Shown here: positions 1,812 to 20,582 of the stretch, piece by piece | Position numbering within the stretch: the stretch's first letter is position 1 | Layout: the number at the start of each line of letters is the position of its first letter | DNA from: Nonomuraea coxensis DSM 45129 | Lineage (GTDB): Bacteria; Actinomycetota; Actinomycetes; Streptosporangiales; Streptosporangiaceae | Length of the DNA stretch: 64,000 bases | Direction of reading: 5' to 3' | Assembly: GCF_019397265.1 (NCBI RefSeq) | Contig: NZ_CP068985.1 | Coordinates: forward strand, 4,754,501-4,818,500 | The notes under the pieces: model-generated | The model's input: the letters and a program-made list of their open reading frames with translations, nothing else | What the model was told of the DNA's origin: nothing | Database searches by the model: none | Position numbers and translations under genes: made by a program

Positions 1812-2927
1812 GTGATCGAGCCCGAGTCCGAGCCGGCCCTGGGGCCGGGATCCCGCCCGCTCCCCGCAACCGCCTTCCCCGCCTCCGCCGCCGGACTGGT
1901 GCCGGCCACCGCCGCGGCGGTCGCGCCCGCCCGCGACCCGTACCTGCTCTACCTGGGGCGCCTCGGCAGCGCCGACTCCCGCCGCGCCATGCAGATCTGC
2001 CTGGACCACATCACCCGCATGCTGACCGGCGACCGGCTCGACGACGCCACCGTCACCGGCCAGGGCCAGCCCTGGCACCACCTGCGCTACGAGCACACCG
2101 CCTGGATCCGCGAGCAGATCGACCAGATGGACTGGTCCCCCGCCTACCGGAACAAGCACCTGGCCGCGTTGCGCGGCGTGCTCAAGGAGGCGTGGAAGCT
2201 CGGCCTGCTCAGCACCGACGACCACCAGCGGGCCGTCGCCCTGGCGCCGTTCGCCGGCCACCGCGAACCGGCCGGCCAGCACGTCCCCGACACCGTCATC
2301 GGCGCCCTCATCGCCGCCTGCGACGCCGACCGCTCATCCGCCGGCGCCGTCACCGGCGCCGGGCTGCGCGACGCGGCCATCATCGCCGTGCTGGACGCCT
2401 GCGGCCTGCGCCGCGCCGAACTCGTCGCCCTGCAGTACGCCGACTACGACCGGGCCCGGCGCCTGCTCACCGTCATCGGCAAGGGCGACAAACAACGCCG
2501 CATCCCGGTCAACACCTTCGCCGCCCGCCGCCTGGAGGCGTGGCTCGCCCGCCGTGGCACTCACCGCGGCCCGCTGTTCCCGCGCCTGACCCGCGGCGGC
2601 ACCGTACGCACCGCCCCCGACGGCCGCCCCTGGCAGATGAACCCCCAGGCCGTACGCGACATCCTCGCCAAACGCACCGAGCAGGCCGCCACCACGCCGG
2701 TACGGCCGCACGACCTGCGCCGCACCTTCATCTCCAACCTGCTGCCGCAGGCCGACGCGATCATGACCGCCCGCCTGGCCGGCCACGCCAGCCCCAGCAC
2801 CACCCTCGGCTACGACGTACGCCCCGACGAAGAAGCCCGAGACGCCGTCGAACGACTCCGCGTCCCCACCGTCGCGCCCCTTCTACCCGACAAAACCGCA
2901 GATCAGCCGCCCGGCACCGCATCCTGA
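1812..2927 (+). CDS. Tyrosine recombinase/integrase
   Basis: 371 residues from GTG at 1812. It has an N-terminal SAM-like core-binding domain (about 40-135) and a C-terminal catalytic domain (about 155-345). The catalytic set is complete: Arg200 in GLRRAEL, Lys224 in GKGDKQR, His300 and Arg303 in HDLRR, His325 in LAGHAS, and the nucleophile Tyr334 in TLGYD. It should cut and rejoin DNA through a 3'-phosphotyrosine link. The gene is divergent from the coiled-coil gene and sits behind a 36-bp dyad. No excisionase, att site or other phage genes are adjacent, so it is either a stand-alone recombinase module or what is left of an integrated element. A second, frameshifted recombinase lies at 29169. 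Confidence 0.92.
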   Translation: MIEPESEPALGPGSRPLPATAFPASAAGLVPATAAAVAPARDPYLLYLGRLGSADSRRAMQICLDHITRMLTGDRLDDATVTGQGQPWHHLRYEHTAWIREQIDQMDWSPAYRNKHLAALRGVLKEAWKLGLLSTDDHQRAVALAPFAGHREPAGQHVPDTVIGALIAACDADRSSAGAVTGAGLRDAAIIAVLDACGLRRAELVALQYADYDRARRLLTVIGKGDKQRRIPVNTFAARRLEAWLARRGTHRGPLFPRLTRGGTVRTAPDGRPWQMNPQAVRDILAKRTEQAATTPVRPHDLRRTFISNLLPQADAIMTARLAGHASPSTTLGYDVRPDEEARDAVERLRVPTVAPLLPDKTADQPPGTAS

Positions 2928-5498: not shown

Positions 5499-5588
5499 CC
5501 GGGTCACCGTGTTCGTCGCCGGGCGCAGACCCGGGATGGTGGGGATTGGTGCCGGCTGACCGGGTTTCGGGCGTCGTGTTACGTGCCC

Positions 5589-5633
5589 TTGTTAGCACGT
5601 CTTAATAGTCGCATACTCACTATGTCCGGACAT
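5589..5633 (+). promoter_or_regulatory. Candidate promoter with overlapping palindromic operator
   Basis: TTGTTA (5589-5594) and CATACT (5612-5617), 17 bp apart, resemble -35 and -10 boxes. A perfect 12-bp palindrome ATGTCCGGACAT (5622-5633) sits where transcription should begin, 20 bp before the regulator's ATG. This is the usual geometry of negative autoregulation by a winged-helix dimer, here the DUF5937 protein itself. Confidence 0.5.
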
Positions 5634-5653
5634 TTCCTGACGGGGGCTGGGGC

Positions 5654-6526
5654 ATGCGTCTGGTCTTTTCTGCCGCAGGACTGGCCGCGACGACCTTCAC
5701 CATCTCCCCCCTGCACCACACCCTGTTCGCCGCCCTGTGCCTGCATCATCCCGGCTTCGCGGCGCCCGGATCGCCGTGGCGGGACCTGGCGTGCCGGACG
5801 CCCGCCCGGGCCATGCCGTTCGTGCGACGCGTCCACCACGCGCCGCACAGCCTGTCCGGCTTCCTCTGGGCCGATCTGCCGCTGCCGCCCGAGGTGGACA
5901 CGCTCAGCGACGAGCTCGACGTCCAGCCCGGTTTCGGCGACGTCGCCGACGCGCTACGCGCCTTCTACGTGAGCTGCGTGGCCCCGGAGTGGGACGCGAT
6001 ACGCCGCCGCCTGAGCGCGCACGTCAACCGCTTCTCCGAGCTGATCTGCGTGCGGGGTTTCGGCCGCACACTGCCCAGGCTCACCCCCAGGCTGAGCTGG
6101 TACGGCTGCGCCCTGCAGATCGACACCTCGGGCATGAGCCCGTCGCCGATGGAGCTCGGTGACGGCGGCGTGGCGTTCTCGCCGCTGATGTGCGCCAGCC
6201 GGCGCTTCCTCGCGCTGGCGCCGCCCTGCGGCGACCACAGGGCGGTCATCGCCTATCCGGTCAGCGACGAGGGCGTCCGGCGCCCCGTGCCGGTGGACGC
6301 CCTGGCCCAGGTCCTCGGGCAGGCTCGCGCCAGGGTGCTGCGCTCGATCGGCGGCGGATCGGCGACCGGCGAGCTGGCCAGGTCGCTGGCGGTGAGTGCC
6401 TCCACGGTGTCCGAGCACGTGACGGCGTTGCGGCTGGCGGGGCTCGTGGACACCTACCGCGAGGGCCGGGCGGTGCGGCACGTGCTCACCGCGCTGGGGC
6501 ACGAACTCCTCAAGAACAGTGCCTGA
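5654..6526 (+). CDS. DUF5937-type winged-helix (ArsR-like) transcriptional regulator
   Basis: 290 residues. The N-terminal 200 or so residues have the layout of the DUF5937 ligand-sensing half found in actinomycete ArsR-like regulators (start MRLVFSAAGLA, then short hydrophobic segments). The C-terminal 70 residues are a winged helix: LARSLAVSASTVSEHV is the recognition helix, followed by the wing around YREGRAVRHVL. It sits directly upstream of, and in line with, the Cys-rich peptide operon, 96 bp from the peptide gene. That makes it the likely local regulator. It may bind the palindrome at 5622 and the inverted repeat at 6536. Its signal is unknown. Confidence 0.8.
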   Translation: MRLVFSAAGLAATTFTISPLHHTLFAALCLHHPGFAAPGSPWRDLACRTPARAMPFVRRVHHAPHSLSGFLWADLPLPPEVDTLSDELDVQPGFGDVADALRAFYVSCVAPEWDAIRRRLSAHVNRFSELICVRGFGRTLPRLTPRLSWYGCALQIDTSGMSPSPMELGDGGVAFSPLMCASRRFLALAPPCGDHRAVIAYPVSDEGVRRPVPVDALAQVLGQARARVLRSIGGGSATGELARSLAVSASTVSEHVTALRLAGLVDTYREGRAVRHVLTALGHELLKNSA

Positions 6527-6535
6527 TTTGTCGCA

Positions 6536-6554
6536 TTTCGGTGGCGGTCCGAAA
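6536..6554 (+). promoter_or_regulatory. Inverted repeat upstream of the Cys-rich peptide gene
   Basis: TTTCGG (6536-6541) and CCGAAA (6549-6554) are perfect 6-bp arms separated by 7 bp. It lies in the only non-coding DNA between the regulator gene and the peptide gene, so it is a candidate operator for the peptide promoter. It does not share the sequence of the palindrome at 5622, which weakens the idea that one protein binds both. Confidence 0.35.
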
Positions 6555-6622
6555 GGATTGCCCCTCCCCTGACCCCGTGGTGATGATCAGGCCGAAACAG
6601 CCCCTCTCCACCAGGAGGTCGG

Positions 6623-6802
6623 ATGACTCGCACACTGAAGGCATTGGGCGACCGGATGCTCGGCGCCCTCCTGCCCGCCACCACCGCGGACGCCGCGGGC
6701 TGCCCCCGCGAGTGCTGGTGCCACCGCTGGCTCGACCACAGCGCGTGGACCTGCACGCGGTCGGACTGCTCGACCTACGTGTCCTGCTACGAGTGCTGCT
6801 GA
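6623..6802 (+). CDS. 59-residue Cys-rich peptide, candidate disulfide-rich RiPP/bacteriocin-like precursor
   Basis: AGGAGG (6613-6618) stands 4 bases before ATG 6623, the strongest ribosome site in this operon. Residues 1-25 look like a leader: amphipathic helix (LKALGDRMLGALLP) ending in Ala/Thr-rich TTADAAG, with no cysteine. Residues 27-59 hold all eight cysteines (27, 31, 33, 44, 49, 55, 58, 59) plus four Trp/Tyr-rich turns and end in CYECC. Eight cysteines allow four disulfides. The next genes encode a MauE/DoxX-type redox membrane protein, a CxxC thioredoxin-like protein and an ABC exporter, the set expected for oxidative folding and export. Thioether or other chemistry is not indicated, as no LanM, radical SAM or YcaO gene is near. 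The precursor role is inference. A small metal-binding protein is the main alternative. Confidence 0.8.
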   Translation: MTRTLKALGDRMLGALLPATTADAAGCPRECWCHRWLDHSAWTCTRSDCSTYVSCYECC

Positions 6803-6816
6803 CCATCCTCCACACC

Positions 6817-6851
6817 CCGCCCACGGCCCCTCCGCAGGGGGTCGTGGGCGG
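6817..6851 (+). terminator. Strong hairpin between peptide gene and mauE-like gene, candidate attenuator
   Basis: CCGCCCACG (6817-6825) pairs perfectly with CGTGGGCGG (6843-6851), and an inner CCCCT/AGGGG continues the stem to a small loop. No T tract follows. It starts 14 bases after the peptide stop. A structure here can terminate part of the transcription or stabilise the upstream mRNA. Either gives more peptide than processing proteins, as is common after RiPP precursor genes. Confidence 0.6.
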
Positions 6852-6872
6852 ACCCACCTGTGAAGGAGCCCC

Positions 6873-7370
6873 ATGCCGTACATAGAGCTGGGCTGCAGGG
6901 CCGTACTCTGCTTCGTCTTCCTGGCCGCGCTGGCGGGCAAGGCCACCGGCTGGCGCGCCTTCGTCTCCTCCGTCCCCGGCCTGGCTCCCGGCCTGCCCGC
7001 CGCGCCGGTCGCGGTGGCCGTACTGGCCGCCGAGAGCGCCGCCGTGGCGCTGCTCGTCCTCGGCGAGCGTGCCGGATTCGTACTGGCCGCCGTGATGACG
7101 GCGGCTTTCGCCGCCGCGATCCTGCAGGCCCTGCGCCGCGGCTCCGCCGCCACCTGCCGGTGCTTCGGCGTCACCGCCGCTCCGCTGGGCCGCGCCCACG
7201 TCGTGCGCAACCTGCTGCTGGTCGCGGTCGCGGTCATCGGCTGGGCGACGCCGGGCGGGAGCGTCGAACTCGCCGGGGTGGCGCTGGCGCTGGTCGCCGC
7301 CGCGGTGCTCGCCGCCGTGCTCGTGCTCTTCGACGACCTCGCCGACCTTCTCCTGGAGAGGAACCTCTGA
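6873..7370 (+). CDS. MauE/DoxX-type redox-associated membrane protein
   Basis: 165 residues with about four or five membrane helices (around 8-25, 42-62, 67-86, 108-125, 132-155). The paired cysteines in CRCFG (C95, C97) match the conserved CxCFG signature of MauE-like proteins, which act in disulfide formation or electron transfer at the membrane. AAGGAG (6863-6868) precedes ATG 6873. Its stop shares one base with the ATG of the following thioredoxin-like gene, so the two are translationally coupled. In methylamine utilisation MauE works with MauD, a thioredoxin-like protein. The same pairing here with a Cys-rich peptide points to oxidative folding or maturation of that peptide. Confidence 0.85.
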   Translation: MPYIELGCRAVLCFVFLAALAGKATGWRAFVSSVPGLAPGLPAAPVAVAVLAAESAAVALLVLGERAGFVLAAVMTAAFAAAILQALRRGSAATCRCFGVTAAPLGRAHVVRNLLLVAVAVIGWATPGGSVELAGVALALVAAAVLAAVLVLFDDLADLLLERNL

Positions 7371-7855
7371 TGCCGTACGTCATCGCAGCCCTGGTCATCG
7401 TGGGCGTCGTGAGCGCGCTCAACCTGGTGCTGACGCTCGCGGTGATCCGCCGGATGCGCCACACCGAGCAGCACGCCGCTCCCGCGGGGCCGCCGCTGCT
7501 GCCGCTGGGCTCGACCGTCCCCGACATCCGCGGGATCGGGCGGCCCCTGGTGATCGGCTTCTTCGACACCGAGTGCCACGCCTGCCCCGGGCAACTGCCG
7601 CCGTTCCTCCAGCTCGTCGCCGACGCGGGCTACTCGCCCTCGCAGGTGCTCGCCGTCGTGTCCGGCCCCAACGGGGAGGGCTACGCGGACACGCTGCGCG
7701 GCAGCGCCACCGTGATCACCGAGCCCGCCAACGGGCCGGTCTGCCTGGCCTTCCCCAACGCCGCCTTCCCCGCCTTCTACCTGCTCGACGACTCCGGCCG
7801 GGTCAGGTCGCGCGCGGTCACCGTGGCCGGGCTGGGCGCCCCCGTCACCGCATGA
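7370..7855 (+). CDS. Membrane-anchored thioredoxin-like (TlpA/MauD-type) protein
   Basis: 161 residues. Residues 3-26 form one membrane helix, so the rest probably lies outside the membrane. The redox motif is CHAC (C69-C72) after the strand VIGFFDTE, and a cis-Pro candidate is Pro134 in AFPAFYLL. A further Cys125 is present. The fold order agrees with TlpA/MauD disulfide oxidoreductases, though the domain is short. It is coupled at both ends: its ATG overlaps the mauE-like stop and its TGA overlaps the ABC transporter ATG (ATGA). Likely partner of the MauE-like protein in making or exchanging disulfides in the exported peptide. Confidence 0.85.
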   Translation: MPYVIAALVIVGVVSALNLVLTLAVIRRMRHTEQHAAPAGPPLLPLGSTVPDIRGIGRPLVIGFFDTECHACPGQLPPFLQLVADAGYSPSQVLAVVSGPNGEGYADTLRGSATVITEPANGPVCLAFPNAAFPAFYLLDDSGRVRSRAVTVAGLGAPVTA

Positions 7856-9651
7856 CCGACGACGTCTCGCCCGGCGTGCCGCGGCTGGCCGGGAGGGCCG
7901 TGACGGTGTGGGGGCTGGCCTGGCAGGCCGCCCCGCTCGCCACCGTCTGCTCGGCGGTCGCCGTGGTCGCCGGTGGCACGATGCCGGTGGCCGCCGCCTG
8001 GTGCACGAAGCTGATCCTGGACGGTCTGGCGGGCGGCCGTGCCGTGCTGATGCCCACGATCATGCTCGGTGTGGTGGGGCTGGTCGCCGCGCTGCTGCCG
8101 CACCTGACCGAATACACCGACGGGCGGCTGCGCCGCGGCATGGACCTGCTGACCCGCGAGCGCCTGTTCACCTCGGTCAACGCCTTCGTCGGCCTCGGCC
8201 CGTTCGAGAACCCCCGCTTCCGCGACCGGCTCAGACTGGCCGAGCAGGCGGGGACGGGCGCGGCCGGCCAGATCCTGTCTCCCAGCCTGGCGCTGGTGCG
8301 CGGGCTGGTCACGCTGGCCGGGTTCGTCGCCGCGCTCATGGCGCTGAGCCCGGCCATGACCGCGATCGTCCTGCTGTCCGCGCTGCCGTCGCTGGGGGTG
8401 CATCTGTCGCTGAGCAGGAGCAAGGTGCGTCTCGGCTGGGAGCTCAGCCCGGCGATGCGCCGCCAGATCTTCTACGCCGATCTGCTCACCGAGGTCGAGC
8501 CGGCCAAGGAGGTGCGGCTGTTCGGGCTCGGCGGGTTCCTGCGCGACCGTCTCCTCGGTGAGATCCGCGCGGTCAACCACCAGGAGCAGGGCCTGGAACG
8601 GCGGGCGCTGGCGGGCTACGGGCTGCTGGCCCTGCTCGGCGCGGCGATCGGCGGCGCGGGACTGATCTGGGGGATCGCCGGCGGCCGTCTCGGCGTGGGC
8701 GACGTGGCCGTCTTCACCGCCGCCGTCGCCGGGGTGCAGGGCGCGTTGTCCGGCGGGGTCACCCAGCTCGCCCGGCTGCACCAGGCGCTGCTGGTCTTCG
8801 GCCACTACCGCGCCGTCGTCTCCGCCGCCCCGGACCTTCCCGTACGGCTCCCGCCCCGCCCGCTGCCCGCGCTCCGCTCGGGGATCGACCTGCGGGACGT
8901 CTGGTTCCGCTACGGCGAGGAGCAGCCGTGGGTGTTGCGCGGAGTGGATCTCACCATCCCGTACGGCGCCTGCGTCGCGCTCGTGGGGCTCAACGGCGCC
9001 GGCAAGTCGACGCTGGTCAAACTGCTGTGCCGGTTCTACGACCCGTCGCGTGGGGCGGTGCGCTGGGACGGGACGGACCTGCGTGACGCCGACCCCGCCG
9101 AACTGCGCTCCCGGCTGACCGCGGTCTTCCAGGACTACGTGGCCTACGACTTCACGGCGGCCGAGAACATCTCGCTCGGCGCGCTGGGGGCCTCGCCCGA
9201 GCAGGTCAGGGCGGCGGCGCGGCTGGCGGGTGTGGACACGGCGCTGGAGCGCCTGCCGTACGGGTACGACACGTTGCTGAGCAAACGCTTCCTCGACGCT
9301 GCCGAGGCCTCCGGCGTCGTGCTGTCCGGCGGCCAGTGGCAGCGGCTCGCCCTGGCCAGAGCGCTGATCAGGGGCGAACGTGACCTGCTCATCCTGGACG
9401 AGCCGAGCGCCGGGCTCGACGCGGAGGCCGAGCACGCCATCCACCAGAGGTTGCGCGAGTATCGGGCCGGGCGTACCAGCCTGCTGATCTCCCACCGGCT
9501 GAGCGCGGTCAAGGACGCCGACCTCATCGTGGTGCTGGCCGAGGGCAGAGTCGCCGAGCAGGGCACCCACGCCACGCTCATGGCCTCAGGCGGGGAGTAC
9601 GCCCGCCTGTTCACCCTCCAGGCCAGCGGTTACGCCGTCGAGGTCCGCTGA
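7852..9651 (+). CDS. ABC exporter, fused membrane and ATPase domains
   Basis: 599 residues. The N-terminal half has about six membrane helices. The ATPase half begins near residue 345, with Walker A GLNGAGKST (about 378-386), signature LSGGQ (about 490), Walker B LLILDEPSAGLD (about 512-523) and the H-loop ISHRLS. It is a half-transporter that should work as a homodimer. It has no N-terminal C39 peptidase, so leader removal would need another protease. The start overlaps the upstream stop (ATGA). Position at the end of a coupled peptide-redox operon makes peptide export its likely job. Immunity by export is also possible. Confidence 0.9.
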   Translation: MTDDVSPGVPRLAGRAVTVWGLAWQAAPLATVCSAVAVVAGGTMPVAAAWCTKLILDGLAGGRAVLMPTIMLGVVGLVAALLPHLTEYTDGRLRRGMDLLTRERLFTSVNAFVGLGPFENPRFRDRLRLAEQAGTGAAGQILSPSLALVRGLVTLAGFVAALMALSPAMTAIVLLSALPSLGVHLSLSRSKVRLGWELSPAMRRQIFYADLLTEVEPAKEVRLFGLGGFLRDRLLGEIRAVNHQEQGLERRALAGYGLLALLGAAIGGAGLIWGIAGGRLGVGDVAVFTAAVAGVQGALSGGVTQLARLHQALLVFGHYRAVVSAAPDLPVRLPPRPLPALRSGIDLRDVWFRYGEEQPWVLRGVDLTIPYGACVALVGLNGAGKSTLVKLLCRFYDPSRGAVRWDGTDLRDADPAELRSRLTAVFQDYVAYDFTAAENISLGALGASPEQVRAAARLAGVDTALERLPYGYDTLLSKRFLDAAEASGVVLSGGQWQRLALARALIRGERDLLILDEPSAGLDAEAEHAIHQRLREYRAGRTSLLISHRLSAVKDADLIVVLAEGRVAEQGTHATLMASGGEYARLFTLQASGYAVEVR

Positions 9652-9715
9652 AGGCCGCCTGATCACGGTTCGGTATCGGTCGCGGATGGCCGACCCCAGT
9701 TCGAGAAGAGAGAAT

Positions 9716-10534: not shown

Positions 10535-11422
10535 TCAGGATCCGGGTTCTGTGCGTGCCCGGGTGAGCCCGGAGCCGGTGAGGGCGGCGAGCCGCGCGTC
10601 GTCCCAGGTGACGTCCGGGTCGGGTTCGAGGTAGGTGACCGCGAGGCCGGCGGCGGCGAGGCCGAGCAGCGACCAGTCGGCGGCGGCGCTCGCCCCCGTG
10701 GGGTTGGCGGGCACGCGCCGGTCGAGCAGGCCGGGCTCGGGCAGCGCCATGAGCACCAGGCCGCGCATCGCCGCGCAGGCCAGCGTCGCGATCAGTGGGA
10801 AGCCGCCGCCCGTGCCCGGCCGCGGCCGGTAGCCGAGCGCCGTCGCGACCGCCTCCCAGCCGTGCGCCACCCGCTCCACGAAGCGCTGCTCGGAGCGGGC
10901 CAGCGCGGCCTGCACGTCGGCCCGCAGGGCGCCTTCGGACAGGCTCAGGAACGTGGCCTGCAGGGCCAGGTAGGTGCGCCACTCCGCGGAGCCGTGCACC
11001 GCCTCGAAGTCGCTGACCGCCGTCACCCGCAGGAGCTCGGTGATCACGTCATGGCGGCCCTCCGGGGTGGCCAGGTCGCCGGCGCGGGCGGCCAGCACCG
11101 AGCCCAGCACCTCCCGGGTGGTCTCCAGGGCCGGCGCGGACGCGGGAGCGGCGCCGCCGGCCAGCTCGCGCAGCAGGTCGCCGAAGAACAGGTCCTTGTA
11201 CGGCCAGCGGCGGTAGACGGCGGCCCTGGACACGCCGGCGTCGCGGATGACGTCCTCGAAGCCGAGGTGGTCCAGCCCCACCGTCAGGCCGTCGCGGTGG
11301 ACCATGGCGAGGGCGGTGTCGAGCATCCGCCGCCCGGTCTCCTCGTCGGTCAGCCGGCGGCGGCGACGGGCGGGGCCGGCGGGCATCGACGGGCCGGGCT
11401 CCGGCGGGTAACTTTGAGGCAT
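10535..11422 (-). CDS. TetR family transcriptional regulator
   Basis: 295 residues if started at 11422, or 283 from the Met at 11386. After a basic stretch (PARRRRR) comes the TetR helix-turn-helix: GFEDVIRDAGVSRAAVYRRW, then the KDLF motif. The rest is the helical ligand-binding domain with a longer C-terminal region than usual. The upstream start codon lies head to head with the CPBP protease gene and overlaps it by two bases, with a dyad over both starts, so the later Met is the safer choice. It probably represses itself and the protease gene. Confidence 0.85.
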   Translation of the reverse strand: MPQSYPPEPGPSMPAGPARRRRRLTDEETGRRMLDTALAMVHRDGLTVGLDHLGFEDVIRDAGVSRAAVYRRWPYKDLFFGDLLRELAGGAAPASAPALETTREVLGSVLAARAGDLATPEGRHDVITELLRVTAVSDFEAVHGSAEWRTYLALQATFLSLSEGALRADVQAALARSEQRFVERVAHGWEAVATALGYRPRPGTGGGFPLIATLACAAMRGLVLMALPEPGLLDRRVPANPTGASAAADWSLLGLAAAGLAVTYLEPDPDVTWDDARLAALTGSGLTRARTEPGS

Positions 11423-12215
11423 GAGACATGATATCTCAAGTTCTGTCCGGCACGTCTGGATGTTCGTCGTGCTGGTGTTCCTGCTCACCGTCCCGTTCGC
11501 GGTCGCGGGCTGGGTGGCCGGCGCGCAGATCGTGCCGGGCGTGCCGTTGACCGGGCTCGCCGTCGTCTGCCCGGCCGTCGCCGCGTTCGCCCTCACCTTC
11601 CACGCGAGCGGGACGGCCGGGGTGCGGGCGCTCGCCCGGCGGGCCTTCGACGCCGGCCGGGTCCGCAGGAAGGCGTGGTTCGTGCCGGCGCTGCTGCTGT
11701 ATCCGGCCTTGGTGGCCCTGTCGTACGCGCTGCTGCGGACGACCGGCGCCACCCTGCCGGACGCCCGCGTCTCCGTGGCCTCGGCGGCGCTGCTGGCCGC
11801 GGCCCTGTTCGCGGGCGCGCTGTGCGAGGAGCTGGGCTGGTCGGGCTACGCCACCGAGCCCTTACGCGCCCGCTGGGGCTCGCTGGGGGCGGGCCTCATC
11901 CTGGGGGCGGTCTGGTCGGTCTGGCACTGGACGGCGTTGCTCCAGGTGGGCCGGCCGGTGTCCTGGATCGCCTGGTGGACGCTGGGCACCGTAGCCATCC
12001 GCGTGATCATGGCGTGGCTGTACGGCCACATGGGCGGGAGCGTTCTGGCCATGACCCTGTTCCACATGTCGGTCAACCTGTCGTGGCAGCTGTTCCCGGT
12101 GGCCGGGTCACACTTCCCCGTGGCGCTGGTGGCCGTGCTGACAGCGGGCATGGCCGTGATCGTCGTCGCCGGCGGGCGCGTCCGGGCGCGGAGCCCCGAG
12201 GGCGCGCGCTCCTGA
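11421..12215 (+). CDS. CPBP family intramembrane glutamic endopeptidase
   Basis: 264 residues with about eight hydrophobic segments. The family motifs are visible: EELGWSGY (motif 1, paired Glu), WHWTALL (motif 2) and FHMSVN (motif 3, His). These Glu and His residues form the membrane-embedded active site of CAAX/Rce1-like proteases. In bacteria such proteins are often linked to peptide immunity or membrane stress. It is divergent from a tetR gene and the operator covers its first codons. A start at ATG 11460 would leave the operator in non-coding DNA. Confidence 0.85.
   Translation: MRHDISSSVRHVWMFVVLVFLLTVPFAVAGWVAGAQIVPGVPLTGLAVVCPAVAAFALTFHASGTAGVRALARRAFDAGRVRRKAWFVPALLLYPALVALSYALLRTTGATLPDARVSVASAALLAAALFAGALCEELGWSGYATEPLRARWGSLGAGLILGAVWSVWHWTALLQVGRPVSWIAWWTLGTVAIRVIMAWLYGHMGGSVLAMTLFHMSVNLSWQLFPVAGSHFPVALVAVLTAGMAVIVVAGGRVRARSPEGARS
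11422..11438. promoter_or_regulatory. TetR-type operator between tetR and the CPBP gene
   Basis: TGAGA (11422-11426) and TCTCA (11434-11438) with inner AT/AT pairs make a 17-bp dyad with one mismatched pair. It lies across the annotated starts of both divergent genes, which suggests that both use internal starts or leaderless transcripts. It is a natural binding site for the TetR protein encoded here. Confidence 0.55.
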
Positions 12216-18916: not shown

Positions 18917-20582
18917 GCTGTGCTGTGTGAGCGGCTCCGCAGTTTGCCCGTAATGTCCCCGGTGCGGTTGGGGCGGGCCGTCGCATGACGCTGCGGGGGC
19001 GCCGGGTTCCACGTGCCCGGGCGGGGGCTCCTTCCTTGATCGTTGCGGTGGGGTCCGGCTCTCAGGTGAGAGCGGGTAGGTCGATGAGGCGCTGCCAGGC
19101 CAGGGCGAAGGTTTGGGCCCAGGGCCAGGTGCGTTCGATGCGCAGGTGGCGGCGGCGGGCGTGGGCGGCCAGGCGGGCGGGCAGGTGGTAGAGCCGGTAG
19201 CGCATGGTGTTGGGTTCGGCATGTTCCAGGTCGTCCTGGTCATGCAGGGTCAGCAGGCGTAGCCAGCAGTCCAGGTCCTGGCCGAGGTTGGCGGCGAGCA
19301 CCCAGCCGGCGTTGACGGTCCAGTTCTTGCTGGGCAGGTTACGCAGGCCCATCGCCTTGCCGGCGCGGACCCGGTCTTCGACGACGGCGTGGGCGCGGGC
19401 CAGGGCGTCCAGCCATTGCGGGTGGTGGGAGCCGGCGATGCCCCACATGCGGCCGATGTTGGTGACGACGATGGAGTACTTCCAGCCGGTCCGCATCTCC
19501 AAGGCGGTGAGGTTCTTGCGGTGCCGGGCTGAGGGGCGGACCCGGCGCACCAGCAGTCGCATGCCGTCCGGCCAGCCGGTGCGCTGGTTGAGTCCGGTGA
19601 GTTCGGCGACGTGGTAGCCGGGTTGAAGGTCACCATTCTGGTCGAGAGAGTCGGTCCAGGCGGTGGCGGGTAGCCGGGCGATCGCTTGCTCATCGAGGTC
19701 GGTGATGGTCCAGCCGACCAGGTAACGCACCGTGCGGCGGGCGGTGTTCAGTTTCTCCAGGTGGGCGAGCAGGTCGTGGGTGGCGCCCGCGCCGTCCACC
19801 CGTACCAGGATCTTGGCCTGGCAGGAGTTCGGGATCTGGGCCAGCGCGTCGCGCAGCACCCGTAGGTGGTCGGCGACGGTGTTGCTGCCGGCGTTGCCGG
19901 GGCGTAGCAGTATGGCCAGCGCTTCCTGGGTGTTGGCGCACCAGCAGGCCAGCGGGTGAAAGCCATAGGTTTTCTTGAACGTGACCGCTGCGCCGATCTT
20001 GTCGGAGGCGGAGGTGATGATGGTGGCGTCGATGTCGATGACGATCCAGCCGCGTAGCCGTTTGCCGGCCACGGTGAGCCAGGGGAAGCCGCCCGGGCGC
20101 AGGTGCAGCAGTTGCCAGACGTGCCGGCGTACCCTGGCCCGCATCTTGGCGATGCGGGCGAGCATCGGCTCGTCCAGGCCGGCGAGTGTGCGGTGAATGG
20201 TGGAGTCCGACGGCGCTGCGCCGAACAACACGGCGTGGTGGGCTTGCAGTCGTTCGGCCTCCAGCAGGCTCCGGGCGCCGCACGTGATCGCTGCGGCCAG
20301 GGTGACCAGGACATGAGCCCGGTCGCGCCAGGTCGCGCTTTGCCCGCCCGGCCACAGTCCGCCAAGCGCTGCGGTCAGCCCCACCCGATCAGCGAGCTTG
20401 TGCAGCAGGACCGCGCCCGCGTGACCCACCAGCCCTTTTCCATCGGCTGTGACAGACAACCGACGATCCCACCCGATACGCTCACTCACCAGAAAGGTGC
20501 ACCTGCTTCTGCAGCGGATATGGCTTCGACACCCGAATCCTTGCAGTTCAGGGGCACCTTTTCTCATGTTCTAGAGCACAGC
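18917..20582 (-). mobile_element. IS1380-family insertion sequence (ends tentative)
   Basis: The body is the transposase at 19062-20486. The best candidate ends are GCTGTGCT at 18917-18924 and its inverse AGCACAGC at 20575-20582, which give 1666 bp, close to the usual size of this family (about 1.6-1.7 kb). The match is only 8 bp and no 4-5 bp target duplication fits exactly, so the boundaries may be off by some tens of bases. Confidence 0.5.
19062..20486 (-). CDS. IS1380-family transposase
   Basis: 474 residues from GTG 20486. The DDE domain is recognisable: SDSTIHRTL and the region WIVIDIDATIITS give the first Asp, KILVRVDGAGATHDLL the second, and the helix-rich C-terminal part carries the Glu. 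Length and order match intact IS1380-family (DDE group 1) transposases, and there is no internal stop, so the element may still be active. It sits inside the accessory block that splits the DUF2268 gene. An upstream extension of the frame to 20567 lacks coding character. Confidence 0.88.
   Translation of the reverse strand, partial: SERIGWDRRLSVTADGKGLVGHAGAVLLHKLADRVGLTAALGGLWPGGQSATWRDRAHVLVTLAAAITCGARSLLEAERLQAHHAVLFGAAPSDSTIHRTLAGLDEPMLARIAKMRARVRRHVWQLLHLRPGGFPWLTVAGKRLRGWIVIDIDATIITSASDKIGAAVTFKKTYGFHPLACWCANTQEALAILLRPGNAGSNTVADHLRVLRDALAQIPNSCQAKILVRVDGAGATHDLLAHLEKLNTARRTVRYLVGWTITDLDEQAIARLPATAWTDSLDQNGDLQPGYHVAELTGLNQRTGWPDGMRLLVRRVRPSARHRKNLTALEMRTGWKYSIVVTNIGRMWGIAGSHHPQWLDALARAHAVVEDRVRAGKAMGLRNLPSKNWTVNAGWVLAANLGQDLDCWLRLLTLHDQDDLEHAEPNTMRYRLYHLPARLAAHARRRHLRIERTWPWAQTFALAWQRLIDLPALT

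What the first reader, a model, noticed from the sequence alone, without database searches (positions are those of the whole stretch)
5589..9651. A self-contained operon for a Cys-rich exported peptide with its own disulfide machinery
Seen directly: a DUF5937-type regulator, a 59-residue peptide with eight cysteines confined to its last 33 residues, a MauE/DoxX-type membrane protein with CRCFG, a membrane-anchored thioredoxin-like protein with CHAC, and a fused ABC exporter. The last three genes are coupled by 1- and 4-base overlaps. Known: MauE with MauD, and the thiol oxidoreductases beside the glycocin sublancin, work in disulfide chemistry. No radical SAM, LanM, YcaO or P450 is near. I infer a RiPP-like, disulfide-stapled peptide whose folding is done by a MauE/TlpA pair, a combination I do not know to be described. 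Leader cleavage would need a separate protease because the exporter has no C39 domain.
Basis: partly seen in the sequence, partly recalled or inferred. Interest (0 to 1): 0.86.

Follow-up and report, generated by a model that had tools for sequence, protein, structure and literature searches.

The report
Disulfide-rich secreted peptide operon
This actinomycete carries an operon for a small peptide probably held together by four sulfur-sulfur bridges; it belongs to a large, almost unstudied family in which a constant export tag is joined to a highly variable, venom-toxin-like active part.

Summary
In detail: regulator, 59-aa peptide with 8 Cys, MauE, CxxC thioredoxin-like protein and ABC exporter, with the stated overlaps. 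It is not a one-off. A leader-only profile finds the precursor in 131 of 297 same-family genomes (up to 7 hits each; 5 in this genome). In 143 distinct precursors the leader is constant (DR...P-xxx-A-x-A; Pro 139, both Ala 134), the core hypervariable (74 Cys-spacing patterns), and 140 cores have an even Cys number. In 60 leader-selected loci an S26 signal peptidase lies nearby in 54, ABC in 51, TlpA in 49, MauE in 39, against 0, 6, 0, 0 of 40 control windows. So the missing protease is probably an S26 signal peptidase cutting after AxA. Here that gene is truncated to its last 26 codons (5525-5602), while four near-full-length copies lie beside paralogous precursors elsewhere in the genome. 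Best reading: an exported, disulfide-stapled peptide, perhaps antagonistic, folded by TlpA/MauE. The combination was not undescribed: decRiPPter (2020) listed mauE clusters with precursors of at least 8 Cys as candidate RiPP families. Activity, disulfides and the side of oxidation are untested.

The parts
5525..5605 (+). remnant of an S26 signal peptidase gene: last 26 codons plus stop; the catalytic Ser/Lys region is absent
   Evidence: tblastn 81% and 73% identity to the S26 C-termini of L009 and L010; blastn synteny with L009, L010 and L011 breaks at 5523; own-genome search finds the same remnant, 27 residues; stop read
5654..6526 (+). ArsR-type winged-helix regulator, next to the precursor also in the nearest relatives (L009, L010 = L044, L011, L045)
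   Evidence: HTH_20 E=1.4e-7; map
6623..6802 (+). precursor peptide: leader 1-24 (MTRTLKALGDRMLGALLPATTADA), predicted cut, core 25-59 with 8 Cys (35 aa; calculated monoisotopic 4108.52 Da with four disulfides)
   Evidence: leader profile hit E=2.4e-9 in the genome; AGGAGG ribosome site upstream
6873..7370 (+). MauE-like membrane protein with CRCFG
   Evidence: PF07291 E=3.8e-19; CxC[FWLY]G in 60 of 61 homologues counted
7370..7855 (+). membrane-anchored thioredoxin-like (TlpA-type) protein, CHAC, FPAF cis-Pro-type site (recalled motif)
   Evidence: CxxC in 87 of 87 homologues; three of three homologues tested pass AhpC-TSA
7852..9651 (+). ABC exporter with fused permease and ATPase, 599 aa, no C39 peptidase domain
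   Evidence: ABC_tran 1.5e-28 and no C39 family; a crude C39 motif in the first 60 residues of the ORF is absent in 86 of 86 homologues

Best explanation
It is a secretion operon for a disulfide-stapled peptide. The ribosome makes a 59-aa precursor whose 24-aa leader marks it for the ABC exporter and ends in a signal-peptidase site (P-x-x-x-A-x-A). The peptide is exported and an S26 signal peptidase removes the leader; in this strain that enzyme must come from elsewhere, probably one of the paralogous loci, because the local gene is truncated. The TlpA-like protein oxidises the eight cysteines to four disulfides, and MauE re-oxidises it, probably passing electrons to quinone. The product is a 35-aa peptide, perhaps an antagonistic (bacteriocin-like) one, since cores are hypervariable and multiplied within genomes. 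Shown here: gene content, leader conservation, AxA, even Cys number, co-occurrence. Inferred: export, cleavage, disulfides, electron flow, activity.
For: Leader-only profile A1 (35 leaders) hits 131 of 297 same-family genomes and 5 places in this genome. Aligned to A1, 143 distinct precursors (37 of them begin with a row of A1) have Pro at position 18 in 139, Ala at 22 in 135 and at 24 in 142, both Ala in 134, and one Cys in all of positions 1-24. Core Cys count is even in 140 of 143 and in 71 of 74 distinct spacing patterns; small ORFs without the leader and with at least 5 Cys: 14 of 47 even. In 60 leader-selected loci S26 54, ABC 51, TlpA 49, MauE 39; in 40 control windows 0, 6, 0, 0. S26: 75 of 78 carry both dyad motifs by pattern, and the one tested passes the signal peptidase I cutoff TIGR02227. 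Near-full-length S26 matches lie within about 3 kb of each of the other four precursors of this genome.
Against: No expression, mass or activity data. Charge flanks of the TlpA anchor (C-side more positive in 84 of 87) favour a cytoplasmic catalytic domain, which does not fit simple outside oxidation, although the S26 anchors, which by family knowledge precede an outside domain, show the same bias in 53 of 76. In the 60 leader-selected loci MauE is not found in 21 and TlpA in 11, some of them cut short, so the redox pair may not be required in cis. Four loci (L186, L193, L199, L200) show none of the four kit genes; L186 ends 0.4 kb after the leader by my own coordinates, and one search lists a TlpA hit just beyond, but the other three are real exceptions. 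Three cores have odd Cys counts. No immunity gene is recognised.
Confidence: 0.8

Rival explanations
1. Same machinery, but the product is not an antimicrobial: a signalling peptide, protease inhibitor, surface or developmental peptide of filamentous actinomycetes.
For: The nearest relatives keep a regulator next to the precursor; no immunity gene is recognised; up to 7 leader hits per genome.
Against: Core diversity (74 spacing patterns) is more than a conserved self-signal would need; core dN/dS exceeds leader dN/dS in the three closest pairs (1.2-2.5 against 0.2-0.5), on few sites; among the seven more distant pairs the core is higher in five and lower in two.
Confidence: 0.3
2. The peptide is an intracellular or secreted metal-binding (metallothionein-like) protein; even Cys counts reflect metal sites.
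For: Cys is 17.9% of core residues; an ArsR-type regulator is adjacent.
Against: Leader with signal-peptidase-like end, linked S26, exporter and thiol-disulfide proteins; core His only 1.9%; 6 Cys is the commonest number (68 of 143). The regulator is present in few loci.
Confidence: 0.05
3. In this strain the operon is decaying: the S26 gene is gone and the product is no longer matured.
For: The break at 5523 leaves only 26 codons of S26; a Phage_integrase gene lies at 1812-2924; in L010 homology stops just after the ABC start. Core dN/dS above 1 does not show constraint.
Against: All other frames are open; mauE and tlpA dN/dS against L009 and L010 is 0.41-0.59; S26 genes lie next to the four paralogous precursors, the best 59% identical to the L010 enzyme.
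Confidence: 0.25

Closest known systems
decRiPPter candidate families with mauE/mauD (Kloosterman et al. 2020, PMC7794033; section 7 read, other passages)
   Same: MauE (one family also MauD) with a precursor of at least 8 Cys in actinomycetes; their strict filter also required transporter, peptidase and regulator; the authors too link MauE to disulfides
   Different: Streptomyces only, 3 families, no experiment on them in the parts read. The parts read do not describe the constant leader, the AxA site, S26, the 4-12 Cys range or the spread in this family. Their precursor table (S2 Table) was not available, so identity with this family is likely but not shown
Pediocin PA-1 / plantaricin operon (PMC4919988, PMC9148482; search listing only)
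   Same: small peptide bacteriocin, ABC exporter and an operon-encoded accessory protein, PedC/PapC (PedC: putative thiol-disulfide oxidoreductase)
   Different: double-glycine leader cut by a C39 domain of the exporter, Firmicutes, 2 disulfides (recalled); here an AxA leader, S26 and MauE
Methylamine dehydrogenase maturation (MauE, MauD; recalled, and as told in PMC7794033)
   Same: MauE with a thioredoxin-like partner serving a disulfide-rich exported protein
   Different: no methylamine dehydrogenase gene among the window proteins scanned; the redox protein scores far below the MauD cutoff (17.7 against 188.6 for one homologue)
Sublancin BdbA/BdbB (recalled)
   Same: peptide bacteriocin with operon-encoded thiol oxidoreductases
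   Different: glycosylated, no MauE, C39 exporter (recalled)
Conotoxins and other venom peptides (recalled)
   Same: constant leader, hypervariable Cys-rich core, gene multiplication
   Different: animal origin, eukaryotic secretory pathway; only an analogy

Membership tests
RiPP (leader-core peptide) | genetically encoded precursor with constant leader and variable core | tested here: met
RiPP (leader-core peptide) | post-translational modification of the core | not testable with these tools
   disulfides inferred from even Cys counts (140 of 143); no other modifying enzyme recognised among the 15 window proteins scanned
RiPP (leader-core peptide) | leader removal by an encoded protease | tested here: inconclusive
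   S26 linked in 54 of 60 leader-selected loci but truncated in this window; cleavage itself not shown
decRiPPter mauE candidate families | mauE homologue beside a precursor with at least 8 Cys | tested here: met
   a Streptomyces paradoxus locus has precursor (10 Cys), MauE, TlpA, ABC and S26 in a row (L013)
decRiPPter mauE candidate families | precursor similar in sequence to those of S2 Table | not tested
MauD (TIGR02661) | passes the family cutoff | tested here: not met
   P0004 no match; of three homologues tested, two score 17.7 and 16.2 bits against 188.6 and one is not listed
MauE (PF07291) | passes the gathering score | tested here: met
   69.7 bits against 27
Double-glycine bacteriocins with C39 exporter | GG leader and C39 domain in the exporter | tested here: not met
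   Ala at leader positions 22 and 24 in 134 of 143; no C39 family in P0005; crude motif absent in the first 60 residues of 86 of 86 ABC ORFs
Lanthipeptides and other enzyme-crosslinked RiPPs | LanB/C/M, YcaO, radical SAM or P450 next to the precursor | tested here: not met
   none among 15 window proteins scanned, between 1.8 and 20.6 kb; other window proteins were not scanned
Signal peptidase I (TIGR02227) for the linked S26 | passes the cutoff; Ser-Lys dyad | tested here: met
   L009 copy 63.3 bits against 47 (one copy tested); dyad motifs in 75 of 78 by pattern. Not applicable to the window's own remnant
Metallothionein-like proteins | metal binding | not testable with these tools
   no binding data; architecture speaks against it

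The most novel reading that the evidence does not exclude
A distinct peptide class in which disulfide folding is done on the cytoplasmic face of the membrane by a TlpA/MauE pair before or during export, so that the ABC transporter handles an already stapled peptide and a dedicated S26 peptidase frees it. Combined with the conotoxin-like constant-leader, variable-core design, this would be a natural bacterial platform for producing many disulfide frameworks with one kind of machinery.
Probability: 0.15. Interest if true: 0.85.

Novelty: new variant of a known kind. Interest (0 to 1): 0.64.

Why it matters
The natural set of 74 cysteine layouts served by one kind of machinery makes it testable how a bacterium folds many different disulfide-rich peptides, and offers a source of stable peptide scaffolds and possibly antibiotics.

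Tried and rejected
Solved structures: no match for the window precursor at E up to 10. The first control for Cys parity (24 of 31 even, 22 of them ORFs with exactly 4 Cys) was uninformative and was replaced by ORFs with at least 5 Cys. Clustering cores by BLAST to count independent families failed because 119 of 143 joined into one cluster; distinct spacing patterns were used instead. In some searches the core was cut at an AxA-like motif before the first Cys after residue 14, so leader Cys and AxA counts from those calls are partly built in (1 Cys in 3372 leader residues; AxA in 135 and last Pro at -7 in 118 of 143); one search repeats them on an alignment to the leader profile and gives nearly the same. 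The phylum-wide leader search (396 genomes) gave 9 genomes at E<=0.01, of which only this genome is convincing. The class-wide search (394 genomes) gave 21 at E<=0.001: 17 of this family and 4 of another, f3/g70.

Literature (open-licence PMC only): searches turned up no paper but PMC7794033 that joins MauE to a RiPP. One search lists ten papers; two were opened, the other eight have unrelated titles. One search lists three; the two others (PMC9928984, PMC10617681) and PMC13192320 matched only author names beginning with Maue. One search matched 496 papers, of which 15 were listed and none opened. (PedC) was for comparison, listing only.

Dropped before counts: small ORFs without a Shine-Dalgarno-like motif; precursors with leader E above 2e-3 or of 110 aa and longer (82 kept, 81 distinct, in 76 of 86 loci); L099|5776 was recounted from its internal ATG (7 to 6 Cys; alone gives 79 of 81 even). 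L010 and L044 are the same locus, so the 86 loci are 85 different ones; 64 precursors, 62 not duplicates, 60 of 62 even. The 60 leader-selected loci are a hand-picked part of the leader hits (mostly, some) that did not overlap the 86; several of them are also TlpA hits. L186 was cut short by my own coordinates, L201, L211 and L219 by contig ends.
Full report
What is there. The five genes are confirmed at their coordinates. The precursor (6623-6802) follows an AGGAGG ribosome site. The genome is one contig of 9.07 Mb. The nearest named relatives of the redox gene are in Nonomuraea spiralis (L009, 93%) and Microtetraspora glauca (L010, 92%).

Relatives. P0004 hits 151 of 297 same-family genomes at E<=1e-3, which probably includes other thioredoxin-like proteins. 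I fetched 80 regions around the better hits. With L009-L013 and the window this made 86 loci (85 different ones, since L010 and L044 are the same). Iterated profiles show a gene set of precursor, MauE, TlpA, ABC and S26 in varying order. By locus: TlpA 86 (the selection), ABC 80, S26 78, MauE 63 of 86; a precursor with leader E<2e-3 in 76 of 86.

Leader-selected set. To avoid circularity I made a profile of 35 leaders only, searched with it, and fetched 60 further regions. All 60 contain a precursor; 60 of 62 non-duplicate cores have an even Cys number; S26 54, ABC 51, TlpA 49, MauE 39 of 60. In 40 control windows of 10 kb from this genome and four others of the family the same profiles gave 0, 6, 0 and 0, and no leader hit. 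The leader profile hits 131 of 297 genomes of the family at E<=1e-4, 21 of 394 in the class at E<=0.001, 17 of them from this family, and in a phylum sample of 396 only this genome convincingly. The four loci fetched from three genomes of the other family, f3/g70 (L207-L210), all have the complete set.

Anatomy of the precursor. Combined, there are 143 distinct precursors. Core Cys counts: 4 (18), 6 (68), 8 (41), 10 (8), 12 (5), odd 3. Even counts in 71 of 74 distinct spacing patterns. Leaderless small ORFs with at least 5 Cys are even in 14 of 47. These sequences are related, so any binomial figure overstates the significance; the spacing patterns are the fairer count. Aligned to the leader profile, Pro stands at position 18 in 139, Ala at 22 in 135, Ala at 24 in 142 of 143, Asp at 10 in 133 and Arg at 11 in 127; one Cys occurs in positions 1-24 of all 143 (37 of the 143 begin with a row of the profile). 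In the three closest pairs (window, L009, L010) core dN/dS is 1.2-2.5 and leader dN/dS 0.2-0.5, on few sites; the seven more distant pairs give core values of 0.3-1.1. Tandem copies occur (L207 three, L212 two, L217 two).

The missing protease. In L009, L010, L011 and L045 an S26 gene precedes the regulator. In the window only its last 26 codons remain (5525-5602, 81% and 73% identical to L009 and L010), and homology to L009, L010 and L011 starts at 5523. This genome has five precursor loci; each of the other four has a near-full-length S26 match within about 3 kb, and a fifth lies at 179637. So maturation here, if it occurs, is probably in trans.

Redox pair. CxxC is present in 87 of 87 TlpA homologues and CxC[FWLY]G in 60 of 61 MauE homologues. 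The model (TlpA oxidises the peptide, MauE re-oxidises TlpA with quinone) rests on recalled family knowledge (DoxX/MauE, DsbA/DsbB logic). Against a simple outside reaction: charge flanks place the TlpA domain inside in 84 of 87, but the S26 anchors show the same bias in 53 of 76, so the rule is not reliable here. I leave the side open. One paralogous locus of this genome (L205) has precursor, ABC and S26 but no recognised TlpA or MauE.

Known or new. decRiPPter (PMC7794033; section 7 read, other passages) reported three mauE candidate families, one with mauD, each with a precursor of at least 8 Cys, in Streptomyces; no experiment on them is told in the parts read. The present case is most likely of that kind. 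None of the precursors tested has a Pfam or NCBIfam model (window; ten in Pfam; five in NCBIfam).

Verdict. A real, widespread gene set for secreting disulfide-rich peptides, inferred from sequence alone; a new variant of a candidate kind already in print. Biological activity remains unknown; antagonism is the favoured guess.

Noticed in passing
window 1812-2924: Phage_integrase-family recombinase (E=2.1e-19) about 2.6 kb before the break that truncates the S26 gene; it may be connected with the rearrangement.
   Followed up: partly
window 19065-20567: DDE transposase (PF13701); another sign of mobile DNA in the region.
   Followed up: no
window 11421-12212: Rce1-like CAAX protease family membrane protein 1.8 kb after the ABC gene; such proteins can be bacteriocin immunity proteins (recalled), but homology to L009 ends at 9653, before it.
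   Followed up: partly
L010 6487-6700: In Microtetraspora glauca homology stops just after the ABC start codon; the sequence after it reads like the end of an IS transposase (my reading, no family search).
   Followed up: partly
L205 (own genome C1:7114000-7130000): Paralogous locus with precursor, ABC and S26 but no TlpA or MauE gene recognised, so redox help may come from another locus.
   Followed up: partly
L193 4950-5174: Orphan precursor gene whose product is identical to that of L060 in the same genome (G107), without any kit gene recognised within about 5 kb.
   Followed up: no
L170 4995-5165: One of three odd-Cys cores: the frame runs past the stop of its relatives and gains an extra Cys.
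   Followed up: no
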